From: Vicia villosa
Taxonomy: Eukaryota > Streptophyta > Magnoliopsida > Fabales > Fabaceae
Length of the DNA: 64,000 nucleotides
Assembly (NCBI RefSeq): GCF_029867415.1
Contig: NW_026705581.1
Location: forward strand, 372,001 to 436,000
Direction of reading: 5' to 3'
The notes below the pieces were generated by a model. The model worked only from the letters and a program-made list of their open reading frames with translations. It did not search any database and was not told the DNA's origin. The first letter of the stretch is position 1. Every line of letters begins with the position of its first letter. Shown here piece by piece: positions 33,520 through 39,749 of this stretch. The position numbers were made by a program, and so were the translations under genes.

Positions 33520-34112
33520 AGCCAAAATTAGGGTTTGTGGGTGAAGGAATCTTAGAATTTGGAGATCACATGTGAGAGTTGTACCACATTGCTTATTCAT
33601 GAAGAAAGAAGAAAATTGTGGTTCCAAGAGCAAGGTATAACTTCAAGCATGCAGAATTTTGAACAAAAACTTCTTAATTTCATATCTCTCAAATTAATCA
33701 CTTTTTGATGAAATGAGATAAGTGACAAAGTTGTTTATTTAATTAAGATCTACAACTTTCATGCTGGTAGATTTTTGAGTTTGAAGGTGAAATTTGAAGT
33801 TCCCAAAATAAGGACAAAATCACTTAAAAACCCTAATTTTGACTTTTTTTGACTTTTTTATTCTTGATAAATTTTCTTAGTCAAATGACTTCATTAATTA
33901 TATGTTGATGAATTTGATCTTTAAAAGTCTAATGTTGACCAATTTTCTCAAAAATAAGAAAAATTATGTTTCCATAAAAAAAAAAAAATTAATCTTTATT
34001 CAAGAACTCATGTGAAAAAATTCATTCTCTAGGCATAATCTATTGTAATGTCAGCCCAATCTATCTATTTTTGAGAATAACATAATGGAAGTGTAGTAGT
34101 ATAACATATGAG

Positions 34113-34650
34113 TAGGGGTGGCAAAACGGGCCGGGGCCCGCCGGGCCGCCCGCGCACCCGCCAAAAAATGGCGGGTTGGGTTGAGATTTTACGCTCGCCG
34201 CTCGCCAAAGCCCGCCCCGCCAAAACCCGCCGCCCGCCGTACCCGCCCCGCCAAAGTCCGCCGCTCGCCAAAATCCGCTCCTCCTCCAAAACTCACTATA
34301 TTTTTTAGTTAATTATAGTAATTGCAATTTTTGATGGTTTATTTTATGCATTTATTTATAAATATATGTAGTATTTTTTAGAGTAAATTTGTTGAAAAAT
34401 TACTTTTATAAAAAATTGTTTAAAAAAATAAGTGAAAAGTTTAATTAAAAGGTAAAAAAAGCATATTAATCTATTAAAAAATATAAATAAAAATAGGCGG
34501 GTAAGCCCGCCGCCCGCTAACCCGCCATCTTGGCGGGGCGGGCATGATTTTGATGCCCATTTTACTTCGCGAGTATGCCCGCCCCGCTCGTTTTTTGGCG
34601 GGCATAAGGCGGGGCGGGCGACGGGCGGGCGGCCCGTTTTGCCACCCCTA
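34113..34650. mobile_element. GC-rich hAT MITE, 538 bp
   Basis: Ends TAGGGGTGGCAAAACGGG and CCCGTTTTGCCACCCCTA are perfect inverted repeats. The 8-bp duplication CATATGAG is exact at 34105-34112 and 34651-34658. Subterminal regions are packed with CCCGCC/GGCGGG words around an AT-rich centre, so each end is far richer in CpG than anything nearby. There is no coding capacity; the open frames here are translations of the repeats. It lies within an exon of the RPA-like gene. Confidence 0.92.
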
Positions 34651-34972
34651 CATATGAGTACCGCACAATCACGATCCCAAAAGATAAATTTCCCTTGCTG
34701 GTTGTCGTCAATACAATCAACTTCCAACTTGTACCTTAAATAAGTTTATTGAAGTTAGTTTAGTGCACCCCACATAGAAACATCCATTTAGTATTAGTAG
34801 ACAAATAAAATTAACCTTTGTATTGGTACATCAATATCATGGCCAGCTTTACACTTTAGAACTACTTCTTTCAATTGTACAGACCTTGTGCATTTAGTGC
34901 ATCCATCAAAAAACCAACCGGACTTGGTAATAAATTTCTTGGTTATAGCCGTTGTCACACAAATAGTATCCT

Positions 34973-35293
34973 TGATAGGAAGCTAATCCGAAAATGATAG
35001 ATAGTATTTAGTTATATTTTAATATTTTTAGTTTAATTAGAATTATTAATTTAAGGTTTTATACTAGTTGGTATTTTAGTTCAATTGCTATTGAATTGGT
35101 TTCCACTAGTATTTGGGCATTTTAGTTATTGGCCCATTAGTAACATTATATATGTAGTGTCATTGACACATTAAAGATCAATCAAAGAAATCAAAGTTGT
35201 TTTTATCTCTATTTCCTTAGTTTATTTTAATGTCTTTCTCTTTTTATTGTTGAACCCTAATTCTATATTCTTGGTAGGATTAGCTTCCTAACA
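34973..35293 (+). repeat. Left LTR of the gene-capturing element
   Basis: 321 bp, ending TAGCTTCCTAACA. It includes an AT-rich promoter-like region and CATTATATATGTAGTG. It resembles the right LTR mainly at both ends and in general layout; overall identity looks low. Confidence 0.7.
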
Positions 35294-35307
35294 TTGGTGC
35301 TTTCATC

Positions 35308-37146
35308 ATGTACTCAAATCCTCCTATGGATTACCCTTATCTTACACCTTCATCTCATCAATGGAGCATTCCTCCTACCTATCCCACAAACCCCTCTTTC
35401 ACAACTCCTACCACACCTTCATTTCCATCTTTTCCATGGGAACTTTTCTCACCCTATTACACAAATCCATATGTGCCAACACCATCCCCATATCTGTATT
35501 TCAATCATGGCTTTACACCTCCTCCACCTAACCCATATTCATCTTATCCTACATCTCATTATTCACCCAACTACAACAATTCCTATCAATTCCAAAATCC
35601 AAAAAAAAACTCCTCCATACTTGGTTCTAAATTTCAAACTCATTCTAGAAATAGAAGAGATTTTGATAAGTATCTCCAAGTGAGTCATCCCTCTTTTAAG
35701 AAAAGATCTCAAAAAAATTCCCAAAACCCTTTTGAAGAAATCAAAAACCCTAAATCTGATGAACTAGATTCAAAAAGAGTGAAATGGAGAATGGTTCTAT
35801 CGAACAAGAAGCTTAGAACCGAGTGCACCCAAAATCAAATCACCACTGAATCGAATTTCTTATCTTCATCTTCCAACTCATCCAAACTCCTAACTCTTCC
35901 ACCAACAAACCCATTTTTTCCAAGAGAGAAAAACTCCACCCCAACATCCTCTCCATCCAACCCGACCAAATCCGACACCTCCACACAACACACAATCCAT
36001 ACTTCCTCAGACTCGCAGAATCCTCCGGTTTATGGCGAAATTCAGACTTTGCCTCTGACGTCATCATCTGCGTCCTCAACACTGGAATCTGGCCGGAGCT
36101 CCAAAGCTTTTCCGACGAGTCCCTCTCTCTCTATTCTCCCTTCATCCTGGAAAGGATCATGTGAAGCCACCCACTATTTTCCTAAATCTTCATCCAACGG
36201 AAAAATCATCGGTGCGAAGGCTTTCTACAAAGGCTACGAAGTGTACCTTCAAAGACCCATTAATGAAAGCGTCAAATCGAAATCTCCTCGAGACACAGAA
36301 GGCCATGGAACTCATACAGCCTCAACCGCGGCCGACTCGATCGTTGTTAACGCGAGCTTGTTTCATTTTCCTAACGGTGAAGCTAAGGGAATAATAACAA
36401 AAGTCAGGACCGCAGCGTGCAAAATCTGTTGGAAACTCGGTTGTTTTGATTATGATATTCTTGCTGCTATGGATGAAGCTGTTTCAGATGTGGTTCCTGT
36501 GATTTCACTCTCTATTAGTTCTAATGGCTATGCATCTCATTATTATCGCGATTCGATTGCGATTGGTGTTTTTAGTGCTATACAATACAGTGTTGTTGTT
36601 TCTTGTTCTGCAGGAAATTCAGGTCCGGGTCCTTATACCTCTGTTAACATAGCTCCTGGGATTTTAACAGCTGGTGCTTCGACGATTGATAGAGGATGGA
36701 ATGCTAGAGTTGCGAAGGAGGAAACATTGACGGCAATTCTGATTCTTAAGCGTTCAATTGAAGTTCCTAATAAAGACACTGTCAATAGATTGGGACTTCT
36801 GCTAATGAAAGTTGAAGGAATCCCACTTTTGTTGGTTCTGGATGATGTGTGGCAAAATTCAGAACCACTTATTGAGAAAATCCAATTCCTGATATCAGAT
36901 TTCAAAATTCTGGTCACTTCAAGGGTTGCATTTCTAAAATTTAGCACAACGTGTGTCTTAAAACTTCTTGAAAAGCTCTGTGTCAATATGCCTCTACTTT
37001 CCAATGATACAAGGTATGCATTCTCGGATCCACTCGCTAAACAACCGTATTTCACTTCGAACACCATAGCAACACCTCCACTACCACCTGAACCTCCAGA
37101 CAAGAGTTTATATATTTGTCACCATGCTCTCTATAGCCGATCTTAA
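35308..37146 (+). CDS. Chimeric ORF1: leader, subtilase and NB-ARC pieces
   Basis: 612 codons starting at the first ATG after the LTR. Residues 1-200 are proline/serine/tyrosine-rich, then basic; they may be a remnant Gag leader and were not identified further. A captured subtilase covers about 35925-36693. It lies in another frame up to about 36130, then in the ORF frame with GHGTHTAS (residue 332 on) and [10 protein letters not shown] (residue 432 on). The Asp of the catalytic triad is Asn in the out-of-frame part, and the Ser region is missing. An NB-ARC piece follows (about 36694-36975), with kinase-2 LLLVLDDVW (about residue 507) and RNBS-B-like FKILVTSR. No P-loop or LRR is present. A proline-rich unidentified stretch ends the ORF. 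It cannot be an active protease or a complete resistance protein. Whether it is translated is unknown. Confidence 0.7.
35925..36693 (+). pseudogene. Captured subtilase (peptidase S8) fragment
   Basis: Translation shows LPDQ-like text ([13 protein letters not shown]), the Asp-region VLNTGIWPE, then the [51 protein letters not shown] and [10 protein letters not shown] blocks of plant SBT1-type subtilases. In plants these are secreted serine proteases. It covers the front half of the catalytic domain without introns. One frame change occurs near 36110-36140, and the catalytic Ser part is absent. Confidence 0.85.
36694..36975 (+). pseudogene. Captured NB-ARC fragment of an NLR gene
   Basis: Contains the kinase-2 motif LLLVLDDVW and the following [11 protein letters not shown], with the [10 protein letters not shown] spacing seen in RPW8-type (ADR1/NRG1-like) plant NLR proteins. 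In an intact receptor this region binds and hydrolyses ATP. About 90 residues remain, fused in frame to the subtilase piece. Confidence 0.75.
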
Positions 37147-37400
37147 TCTCCTGTGCGGGCATCATGCTAAGAGTCACTTTTGGTTCTTCACCATCATCAC
37201 ACAATATTCTACACAAGCTTTTACATGGGCATGGCAGCATCTCAACATCATACTTCCTCATATTGCAAAGGTACTTAACTTCGGCGCCTATGTTATTACA
37301 TGTTGGAAAAATTCTGTTGTTGTGGTTGATATTTTTGGGATTTTGCCGATCATTGAAAAGAATAATATTCAACATGATGCATTGTTTGTTCCTTGTAATT
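37052..37400. other. Unidentified captured segment
   Basis: Neither strand gives a recognisable family. On the minus strand the open frame 37573-37052 contains a plausible protein stretch ([24 protein letters not shown]), while the plus strand is read by the start of ORF2. It could be a fifth captured gene piece in antisense. Confidence 0.3.
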
Positions 37401-38020
37401 TGGTAACAATATTTCAAGGCTTTGAGAGTTATGTTAAGAAGAGTATTTATGGTTGTAATGATGGAACCAAGTGTGTTTCGGCTGAAATCGACGAAGCAGT
37501 TGAAGTTGCTAAGAAAGTTGATTATGTTATTTTGGATCAAATTCAAGAAAGGAAATATCATGATAGAGATCATTTATATTTGCCTTATAAGCAACATGAG
37601 CTTATTAAAAGTGTTTCTAAAGATTCTAAGAGACCTGTTATTTTAGTTATTTTGTGTGGTGGACCTGTTGATATTACTTATGCTAAGTTTGATGACAAAA
37701 TTGGAGGGATTTTCTGGGCTGGTTATCTTGATAAGCTGTACTCATGGGATACCAACTCAGCATATATTCATGAACCTCCATACTTCAAGGGCATAACCAT
37801 GGTTCCTCTTAGACCTCATGGTGTTAAAAATGCTTATTGCCTGCTGAATTTTAGTGACAATATAACAACTGATCACATTTCTCCTGCTGGAAACATTAAC
37901 AAGGACAGTCTTGATGCTTTGATGTTGCTTTCATGTATTGTTTATTTCTTAGGAAGTAACTATTATGTGAAACTTCAAGCAACTGCAACCGATCCCTCTA
38001 AAGACAATCTAGAACCTTGA
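37124..38020 (+). CDS. Chimeric ORF2: beta-xylosidase and aconitase pieces
   Basis: 298 codons overlapping the end of ORF1 by 23 bp in another frame. Residues 1-95 are unidentified. About 37400-37734 matches the C-terminal domain of plant GH3 beta-xylosidases ([55 protein letters not shown]). About 37735-37916 matches the end domain of aconitate hydratase ([11 protein letters not shown], then [17 protein letters not shown]). The last 35 residues may be retroelement tail. No catalytic centre is complete. The two pieces are joined in frame with no intron, so they passed through RNA or joined as exons. Confidence 0.7.
37400..37734 (+). pseudogene. Captured beta-xylosidase (GH3 C domain) fragment
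   Basis: About 110 residues with the ordered blocks [44 protein letters not shown] and [10 protein letters not shown] found in cell-wall beta-xylosidase/arabinofuranosidase enzymes. It lacks a few residues after VDYVIL and all of the N-terminal catalytic barrel. Confidence 0.8.
37735..37916 (+). pseudogene. Captured aconitate hydratase fragment
   Basis: About 60 residues matching the C-terminal swivel-domain region of aconitase, with YIHEPPYFK and [11 protein letters not shown]. Aconitase interconverts citrate and isocitrate. The Fe-S cysteines lie outside the piece. Confidence 0.8.
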
Positions 38021-38050
38021 GGACAATGTTCAATGTGAACCGGGCGGCAA

Positions 38051-38331
38051 TGATAGAGAGTTAATATAGTTTATTTAGTATTTTATTTTAGTTGTTGTTT
38101 TGGTAAAAATTCTAGAATGTTCTTAGGATCTTTTAAGGTTGTTTAATTGGGCTTTTATAAGTTTGAGCTTTATTTAATTATCCATGAGGAGTACTATATA
38201 TGTAGTTCCTTGAAACATTGAAAGATTATCAAATGAATGAAAAAGTTATATTTTCTTAATTTATCTTATTTTATCTTCTTAATCTTTAATTTACTCTAGT
38301 GTTGTTAGGGTTACAATCTAGCTTCCTAACA
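38051..38331 (+). repeat. Right LTR of the gene-capturing element
   Basis: 281 bp, begins TGATAGAGAG and ends TAGCTTCCTAACA, immediately followed by the TSD ATCCT. It is shorter and clearly diverged from the left LTR. Confidence 0.65.
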
Positions 38332-39749
38332 ATCCTACACATAAAAGCAATGATATTTAACGATGACAAGATGGAGATATTAATATATTAAATAGAAGTG
38401 AATTGATATGAGAAGAAAGCATAACCTGTGAGATTTTTCATCAGTAATACTTAGTATTTGTGCGTTAAACCAACAATTAACATGCTCAGAAGATCGTGGA
38501 GATTGAGTCCACTGACTTAAAACTTGATCCTGTGATATAGCAAAGTAACATCTTGGGATAGACTGCAATGGAATAAATTCAAAGAGAAATATTAGTATAA
38601 GAAAATGTGACTTAAGCAAAAATTGTTTTATTTAGAATTCATACCTTTGTTTGTAGTTAAGAATTTCATCATGATCAGCATTTATCAATAGTTTGGTACC
38701 AGCCCATAAATTCGACACAGCCACTGGATAAGATCCTATACCAAAAAGATATGAATACATTTAAACAAAAAAGCAAGTTATGATGGAAATTTAAAAGAAT
38801 AAAACATATAAAAATTTTAAAAATTGAGATAGTCTTGCAATTACTATAGTTATAAGGGTTAAATATACGATGTCCCCCTGCCATTAGAGCGAGATTCGGT
38901 TTTGCCTCCCTGAAATTTTTTTTTTGTAAACTGCCCCCTATAAAACACAGATTCTGTTTTCAGAAGCCCCTAAATGCTTTTTATTTACTTTACTTATTAA
39001 CGTTTTAACTGAATAAAAAACTGTACATATTAATTACTAAATTTTTTATAAACTATTAATATATATACTTTTATATAAAATATATTTATATTAAAACTGT
39101 ACATATAAAATGAATAATTTTAAAAAAAACTGTACATATAAAATGAATAATGTTTTAAAAAAAAACTGTACATATTTATAATTTTGTTTGTTTATACAAT
39201 ATATATTAATTTATAATTTTGTTTGTTTTATATAATATATATTAGAATCATTATAAAAAAAATATATAAAAATGATTTATAACACAATTAATTTAACACA
39301 ATTAATTTTTATATATAACTGAATTTTTAAAAATTATTTTATTTATTGTATATATTAACTAAATAAAATAAATATAGATGATGCAATAATTATAAAACTA
39401 ATTATATTTTTCAATTAAAAAATCCCTAACAAATATTAACGTTTTATTTTTTTATATAGTATATTAATTATCCCAAATTTATAAATTTCTAAAAAAATTG
39501 AACAATTCCTATAAAAAATTGAGCAATATTAATTTATATTAGTTATACTAACTTTTTATATTAGTTATACTAAAATATACTTTATATATTAATAGTTAGT
39601 TTATAGTATTTTAAGGACTCCTAGCATAAATGTTAACTTTTTTTTGTTTTATATAAATGTTAAATTTTTTTTATGTTAACGTTAACAACATTTATTTTGT
39701 TTTATATATATGTTAAATTTTTTTTATGTTAACTAAATGTTAACGATCA

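What the first reader, a model, noticed from the sequence alone, without database searches (positions are those of the whole stretch)
34973..38331. LTR retroelement carrying pieces of at least four host genes
Seen: perfect TSD (ATCCT), LTR-like ends, a primer-site-like start, no polymerase, and two ORFs joining subtilase, NB-ARC, GH3 beta-xylosidase and aconitase pieces, all in sense orientation and without introns. Known: retroelements that capture several genes are rare; maize Bs1 is the classic case. Inference: this is a non-autonomous Bs1-like element of a legume, possibly not described, which creates chimeric ORFs from defence, protease, cell-wall and TCA-cycle genes.
Basis: partly seen in the sequence, partly recalled or inferred. 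Interest (0 to 1): 0.9.

Follow-up and report, generated by a model that had tools for sequence, protein, structure and literature searches.

The report
Vetch retroelement family shuffling host genes
A vetch genome carries a family of small retroelements, some recently inserted, whose interiors are patchworks of pieces of many unrelated plant genes, joined into long open reading frames between a constant start and a constant end.

Summary
It carries sense pieces of a subtilase, an RNL-type NLR, a GH3 xylosidase and aconitase, plus a cassette shared with other members. Copy L009 has a 99.35% identical interior and one 904-aa ORF; the window copy is frameshifted. The window LTRs are only 65% alike because the 5' LTR is another subtype, with an inverted LTR tip inside the duplication.

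DNA similarity, blind to ORFs, gave 21 further members with the same leader: 22 members, 19 distinct mosaics. The primer-site motif is exact in 20 of 22, the 3' tail found in 19 of 22. 17 of 19 mosaics carry recognisable host domains, 11 of 19 two or more unrelated ones. Sense frames are open: 0-4 lesions in the 12 members with LTRs at least 96% alike, 21-33 antisense. One member lacks two GT-AG introns of its NLR parent, so that capture went through RNA. No autonomous partner or transcript was found.

The parts
34968..34972 (.). left target-site duplication ATCCT
34973..35293 (+). 5' LTR (321 bp), a different LTR subtype from the 3' LTR; 84.7% to the LTR of L013
34973..34989 (-). inverted copy of an LTR 3' tip (TGATAGGAAGCTAATCC = reverse complement of GGATTAGCTTCCTATCA, the LTR end of e.g. 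L018) at the outer end of the 5' LTR
   Evidence: (I24); reading of the sequence
35294..35307 (+). primer-binding-site-like motif TTGGTGCTTTCATC
35308..37146 (+). ORF1, 612 aa
35308..35810 (+). constant leader (MYSNPPMDY...), shared by the family; no Pfam domain
35936..36694 (+). SBT1.4 subtilase piece, 86% to intronless parent C7:106958088 (L028); 2-nt loss near 36131-36148 relative to the parent
36687..36718 (+). second SBT1.4 piece from 178 bp further down the same parent, 8-bp overlap at the jump
36767..36970 (+). NB-ARC piece of an RNL (NRG1-like) gene, 88% to four loci at C1:63.35-63.82 Mb
36961..37390 (+). family-resident cassette, also in L052, partly in L036, L051 and P0122; origin unknown; 10-bp overlap with the NLR piece
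37387..37730 (+). GH3 beta-xylosidase piece, 85% to C94:1362432
37729..37918 (+). aconitase piece, 92% to C318:604940
37909..37980 (+). further short piece, 92% to C1:42694800, identity unknown; 10-bp overlap with the aconitase piece
37124..38020 (+). ORF2, 298 aa; continuous with ORF1 as one 904-aa frame in L009
38010..38050 (+). 3' tail (AACCTTGAGGACAA..) and polypurine-like stretch before the 3' LTR
38051..38331 (+). 3' LTR (281 bp), 97.2% to both LTRs of L009
38332..38336 (.). right target-site duplication ATCCT

Best explanation
This is one member of a multi-copy, recently active family of non-autonomous LTR retroelements in Vicia villosa. Constant ends (LTR, primer-site motif, leader of about 150 codons, 3' tail) enclose an interior of 2.6-3.0 kb that differs from member to member and is a mosaic of host coding sequence. 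Shown: structure, copies, parent genes for this member, RNA origin of one piece in one other member, cassettes shared between members in new combinations, and open sense frames. Inferred: the RNA is packaged and reverse-transcribed by an unknown autonomous partner; the reverse transcriptase switches from element RNA to co-packaged host mRNAs and to other members' RNAs and back, keeping both constant ends; products whose frame stays open from the leader to the 3' LTR propagate better, perhaps because an early stop would leave a long 3' UTR and expose the RNA to nonsense-mediated decay. The captured pieces then serve as open filler rather than as working enzymes. In logic it resembles the Gag-onc fusions of transducing retroviruses (recalled).
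For: Second copy with the same mosaic: 99.35% over 2769 bp, ORF 904 aa, LTRs 99.3% alike. LTR pairs in 19 of 22 members; perfect 5-bp TSD in 10 of 19; LTRs 100% alike in L023 and L055. Host domains at E up to 0.001 in 17 of 19 distinct mosaics, two or more unrelated families above Pfam's cut-off in 11 of 19 (mosaics counted). The leader alone finds 8 proteins, 8 of 8 from V. villosa; seven carry matches to two or more host genes and P0127 to one. L053's NLR piece lacks two GT-AG introns (449 and 84 bp) of its parent L037 at 88-91% identity. Shared interior matches are all on the plus strand, 68 of 68, and occur in new combinations: L013 = L014-like 1-571 + L016-like 571-1323 + GH35. Sense frames carry fewer lesions than antisense in 22 of 22 members. 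Omega between members over interiors is 0.61-0.81 in five of six comparisons; the longer subtilase part has 16 of 40 differences at conserved sites against 0-2 in nine orthologues.
Against: No autonomous partner, transcript or transposition was seen. Members were taken from the best DNA matches to this element (40 of 1955 candidates scored; 21 leader-bearing loci fetched), so the sample is not random and counts are lower bounds. Two of 19 mosaics (L018, L021) show no Pfam host domain; only 40 member ORFs were scanned. The primer-site motif is missing in 2 of 22 and the tail in 3 of 22. No perfect TSD in 9 of 19 (L027 has 4 of 5 bases; L009 fits GTAGG only with a 1-nt shift, by eye). Joint overlaps of 10, 4, 2 and 8 bp: only one is below 0.05 against simulated blunt joins (0.015, 0.095, 0.245, 0.055). 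Intron loss is shown for one piece of one member. Older members are more broken (L021 19 lesions, L015 11, L019, L020 and L053 8 each). Omega of pieces against their parents is lower (0.26-0.74 for the window's pieces; 0.95 and 0.28 for two parts of L053), which includes the parents' own constraint. One of 10 antisense ORFs hit Pfam. Sense coding pieces give fairly open frames even without selection.
Confidence: 0.87

Rival explanations
1. DNA-level capture, as by Pack-MULEs or Helitrons, later flanked by LTRs.
For: DNA transposons such as Helitrons and Pack-MULEs are the commoner carriers of gene fragments in maize (PMC2774510, passages); that they often hold several pieces is recalled.
Against: LTRs, primer-site motif, 5-bp TSD, shared cassettes in one orientation only (68 of 68 matches), and exact loss of two introns in L053.
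Confidence: 0.03
2. A domesticated host gene kept for a new function, as proposed for maize Bs1.
For: Long open frames; leader omega median 0.56 (166 of 190 pairs kept, 20 of 22 members); annotated gene models exist.
Against: Interiors differ between members, LTRs up to 100% alike, the window copy is frameshifted relative to L009, interior omega mostly 0.6-0.8, conserved subtilase sites changed.
Confidence: 0.06
3. Frames are open only because the pieces are sense coding sequence; nothing selects for openness.
For: Recognised pieces are sense and coding; a few joints per element could be in frame by chance; older members are broken.
Against: Five of 22 members have no break from leader to within 67 bp of the 3' LTR (L009, L013, L014, L023, L055); the window mosaic has about eight joints yet is open in L009, and its first subtilase part is read out of its native frame. 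A neutral simulation gives 6.3 stops in ORF1 and 3.1 in ORF2 at 10% divergence, but the time since capture is unknown.
Confidence: 0.25
4. Assembly chimera or chance flanks around a rearrangement.
For: The two window LTRs differ strongly.
Against: An independent copy of the mosaic on another contig (C2), a third diverged copy (C4), and heterologous LTRs explained by subtype.
Confidence: 0.01

Closest known systems
Maize Bs1
   Same: LTR element with pieces of three host genes (plasma-membrane H+-ATPase, xylan endohydrolase, beta-1,3-glucanase) (PMC13317346, section 4 read) fused to its gag part in a chimeric gene (PMC8616336, passages). The primary 2010 paper is not held. One Vicia member, P0125, also carries an H+-ATPase piece.
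   Different: In those texts Bs1 is one mosaic; here 19 different mosaics share one leader and exchange cassettes. The Vicia leader has no gag domain in Pfam.
Soybean TRIM GmaRetroS15
   Same: Small legume LTR element with pieces of three host genes, one covering exons 5-9 without introns; gene-carrying TRIMs had 5-bp TSDs (PMC4717578, section 13 read).
   Different: The gene-carrying TRIMs are 1,172-1,449 bp; that section describes no long chimeric ORF, constant leader or family of different mosaics.
Maize LTR elements with gene fragments
   Same: Host fragments inside LTR elements: 425 elements, at least 189 captures (PMC2774510, passages).
   Different: That survey found, under its conditions, no LTR element with fragments of more than one standard nuclear gene; here 11 of 19 mosaics have two or more.
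Acutely transforming retroviruses (Gag-onc fusions; recalled)
   Same: Constant 5' coding leader fused in frame to captured host sequence, replication genes lost, helper needed.
   Different: Several pieces per element, plant genome element, helper unknown, no host advantage or disease implied.

Membership tests
LTR retrotransposon (non-autonomous) | paired LTRs with TG..CA ends | tested here: met
   pairs in 19 of 22 members; 18 fetched ones 75-100% alike, window pair 65% because of subtype exchange
LTR retrotransposon (non-autonomous) | 5-bp target-site duplication | tested here: met
   window ATCCT; 10 of 19 members perfect
LTR retrotransposon (non-autonomous) | tRNA primer-binding site after the 5' LTR | tested here: inconclusive
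   TTGGTGCTTTCAT in 20 of 22; no matching tRNA identified; ARAGORN found no tRNA gene in the window
LTR retrotransposon (non-autonomous) | no gag, protease, RT, integrase | tested here: met
   none at E up to 1 in three window ORFs nor at E up to 0.001 in 40 member ORFs; not every ORF was scanned
Bs1-like gene-transducing element | pieces of several host genes in sense | tested here: met
Bs1-like gene-transducing element | capture of spliced RNA | tested here: met
   L053 against parent L037, two GT-AG introns absent; uninformative for the window's own pieces
Bs1-like gene-transducing element | chimeric ORF fused to gag | tested here: inconclusive
   fused to a constant leader without Pfam domain
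Bs1-like gene-transducing element | transcribed and translated | not testable with these tools
   no RNA or protein data
TRIM | very small element (1.2-1.4 kb in the gene-carrying cases of PMC4717578) | tested here: not met
   window 3.36 kb, interiors alone 2.6-3.0 kb

The most novel reading that the evidence does not exclude
A standing gene-shuffling system: a plant retroelement family whose life cycle depends on refilling its interior with host mRNA pieces. Constant 5' and 3' modules are kept, the filler is swapped by template switching between members and host mRNAs, total length stays near 2.8 kb, and only fillers that keep one open frame survive. It would produce new multi-domain coding sequences at a rate not described, as far as my searches show, for an LTR element.
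Probability: 0.45. Interest if true: 0.95.

Novelty: new variant of a known kind. Interest (0 to 1): 0.88.

Why it matters
Capture of several genes by one plant LTR element is described for Bs1 and a few TRIMs; a maize survey found no element with more than one nuclear gene (PMC2774510, passages). A family with 19 different mosaics in 22 sampled members, some with identical LTRs, makes the mechanism of capture, the role of the open frame and the production of new coding sequences directly testable. It also warns annotators: such chimeras sit in public protein sets as 'uncharacterized proteins'.

Tried and rejected
Age from LTR divergence was rejected: the 5' LTR of the window is another subtype, while L009's LTRs are 99.3% alike. 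A host-gene reading of the insertion site (joined flanks look like an intron acceptor on the minus strand) found no support in Pfam or PDB and is left as a remark. Short modules of 74 bp shared by pairs of members are two different sequences, not one common linker. The intron test on the window's own pieces was uninformative. A GH35 parent for L013 and a genome-wide count of the primer-site motif were wanted but the search did not complete. Nine paper searches were made; none of the listed titles and abstract starts describes this family, but most subscription papers are not held. Passages only were seen of PMC12984296 (V. villosa var. glabrescens genome; terms retrotransposon, Gypsy, captur, chimeric), PMC3726574, PMC7264820, PMC1142308, PMC2774510 and PMC8616336; of PMC13317346 the outline and sections 4 and 8; of PMC4717578 passages and section 13.
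Full report
What is in the window. The element runs from 34973 to 38331 between perfect ATCCT repeats. Its LTRs (34973-35293; 38051-38331) align at about 65% (score 78; maximum of 300 shuffles 45). TTGGTGCTTTCATC follows the 5' LTR and ORF1 starts at 35308. Pfam and PDB comparisons identify, in order, a subtilase SBT1.4 piece, an NB-ARC piece nearest At5g66900, a GH3 beta-xylosidase piece and an aconitase piece, all in sense. No gag, protease, RT or integrase domain was found in the three ORFs scanned.

Source. The window is G000:C658:372001-436000 of a 2.03-Gb assembly. The lengths of C7 and C2 equal those of the contigs of V. villosa proteins P0001 and P0121, and P0001 matches L028 (C7) at 100% over 777 aa. 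The window is therefore Vicia villosa.

Copies and parents. L009 (C2) has the same interior: 99.35% over 2769 bp, 16 mismatches, one gap, one ORF of 904 aa. The window's ORF1 and ORF2 are this frame with one frameshift. L010 (C4) carries the mosaic at 86% but lacks the leader. Parents: SBT1.4 at C7:106958088 (86%, intronless), four RNL loci at C1:63.35-63.82 Mb (88%), GH3 at C94:1362432 (85%), aconitase at C318:604940 (92%). The stretch 36961-37390 recurs in L052 and partly in L036 and L051 and P0122; 37909-37980 matches C1:42694800.

Why the LTRs differ. Both LTRs of L009 resemble the window's 3' LTR (97.2%); the window's 5' LTR is nearest that of L013 (84.7%) among those compared. Window and L009 become identical at the end of the 5' LTR and stay so through the start of the leader. 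The first 17 bases of the window's 5' LTR are the reverse complement of an LTR 3' tip found in other members. As the TSD lies outside this, the exchange most likely preceded integration (inference). LTR divergence cannot date this copy.

The family. The search with the whole element gave 43 matches; 40 of 1955 candidates were scored, and most rows cover only the 5' part. L009 and L011 were fetched for interior matches, the others for the 5' part; ORFs played no role. LTR pairs were found in 19 (not L017, L020, L021): 93-100% alike in 15, 100% in L055, 85% and 75% over short stretches in L053 and L054, 65% in the window. Perfect TSDs were found in 10 of 19: window, L013, L014, L015, L019, L022, L023, L024, L026, L055; L027 has 4 of 5; L009 fits GTAGG with a 1-nt shift, by eye. 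TTGGTGCTTTCAT lies at the expected place in 20 of 22 (not L020, L054) and the tail motif in 19 of 22 (not L017, L020, L021). Interiors from leader to 3' LTR in the 19 are 2583-3047 bp, mean 2821, SD 136; those of L011, L053 and L054 are approximate because of their LTR alignments.

Contents. Window/L009, L015/L020 and L016/L017 share mosaics (85-100% of the interior); no other pair shares more than 37%, leaving 19 distinct mosaics. Pfam at E up to 0.001 on 40 selected ORFs (39 from these members, one from L051) and on the window finds host domains in 17 of 19: subtilase/GH3; subtilase/P-type ATPase; E1/tRNA synthetase; GH35; DEAD/topoisomerase I; SF3b1 (in L020); O-FucT; PAL/permease; amidase/ABC/TIMELESS; KARI/PPR; plant mobile domain/amidase; HSP70; Cse1/LRR; NatA/ornithine-arginine decarboxylase/FAR1; NB-ARC; HDAC; dynamin/ArfGAP. 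These are above the curated cut-off; several weaker ones (eIF3, ThiF, HSP70 in L022, Exo_endo_phos, MAM33 and others) are left out. Eleven have two or more unrelated families. None was found in L018 and L021. In the protein database the leader alone finds 8 proteins (E up to 1), all V. villosa and named uncharacterized. Their interiors include KARI/SRPK kinase, Cse1/SEO, HSP70/arginine decarboxylase, HSP70/Noc2, H+-ATPase/DNA methyltransferase/exoglucanase, dynamin/importin and amidophosphoribosyltransferase/GTPase/CDPK; P0127 shows one receptor-kinase match. None matches a fetched member at over 85% across 150 aa. That search only considers proteins of similar length, so absence from other species is not shown.

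RNA origin. L053's NLR piece is contiguous where parent L037 (C2) is split into three exons; the introns (449 and 84 bp) have GT-AG ends, and identity is 88-91%. L053 has the primer-site motif and tail. This is one piece of one member; a GH35 parent for L013 could not be searched.

Recombination. Shared interior matches are all on the plus strand (68 of 68, both directions counted) and occur in new contexts: L013 matches L014 over 1-571 and L016 over 571-1323 and then carries GH35; L011 shares about 455 bp of subtilase with the window and another 578 bp with L014. Overlaps at window joints with both parents tested are 10, 4 and 2 bp, and 8 bp at a jump within the subtilase; against 200 simulated blunt joins each the fractions at least as large are 0.015, 0.095, 0.245 and 0.055: suggestive only. 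A further 10-bp overlap (aconitase to the next piece) was not simulated.

Open frames. The least number of stops plus frame switches is 0-4 in sense for the 12 members with LTRs at least 96% alike, against 21-33 antisense; shuffle means are 27.7-30.9 for the 11 of them. Over all 22 members sense is lower in 22 (for L017, L020 and L021 on the first 2700 bases only); the worst are L021 (19 against 30) and L015 (11 against 19). L009, L013, L014, L023 and L055 are open from the leader to within 67 bp of the 3' LTR (904, 959, 951, 928, 1015 codons); L023 lacks the usual start at the aligned place. Omega between members over interiors (best local alignments, which may include the leader) is 0.61-0.81 in five comparisons and 1.5 in a sixth with few changes; the shared subtilase piece of L011 and window gives 0.65; the leader median is 0.56 (20 of 22 members, 166 of 190 pairs kept). 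Pieces against parents give 0.27, 0.28 (subtilase), 0.26 (NLR), 0.45 (GH3), 0.74 (aconitase), and 0.95 and 0.28 (two parts of L053), which mixes in the parents' constraint. The longer subtilase part changes conserved sites (16 of 40 differences; 0-2 in nine orthologues), the shorter part less so (2 of 11; 0-1), and that shorter part is translated out of frame. Together this suggests that openness rather than enzyme function is kept; selection is inferred, not shown.

Orientation control. Of 10 antisense ORFs, one matched Pfam (NAD-GH in L019); that family is, from recall, a known antisense artefact of HSP70.

Place among known things. Bs1 joins three host genes (PMC13317346, sections 4 and 8 read) to gag (PMC8616336, passages). 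Soybean GmaRetroS15 holds three genes (PMC4717578, section 13 read). A maize survey found 425 elements with fragments but none with more than one nuclear gene (PMC2774510, passages). Against these, a recombining family of many mosaics with constant ends is a new variant of a known kind. Nine paper searches listed no description of it, in a library that lacks most subscription papers.

Noticed in passing
window 34300-34972 and 38332-39000, minus strand: Joined flanks read ..TTTTATGTGTAG|GATACTATTTGTG.., like an intron acceptor, with exon-like open stretches on both sides (e.g. DTICVTTAITKKFITKSGWFFDGCTKC..), so the element may sit at a splice acceptor of a host gene or pseudogene. Pfam and PDB gave no significant match.
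   Followed up: partly
window 34112-34133 and 34630-34651: 22-bp perfect inverted repeat (GTAGGGGTGGCAAAACGGGCCG) 496 bp apart around GC-rich repeats, just left of the element; looks like another small repeat.
   Followed up: no
window 39008-39200: Short AT-rich direct repeats with the unit AAAACTGTACATAT to the right of the element.
   Followed up: no
L009 flanks: L009 fits a GTAGG duplication only if its 5' LTR begins one base earlier (ATGAAAG), as if the 5' end carried an extra base.
   Followed up: no
L036 (G000:C457): The family-resident cassette lies directly before pieces that read like another subtilase; no leader was found in the fetched stretch.
   Followed up: no
P0121-P0128: Chimeric ORFs of this family are named as uncharacterized V. 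villosa proteins in public databases.
   Followed up: yes
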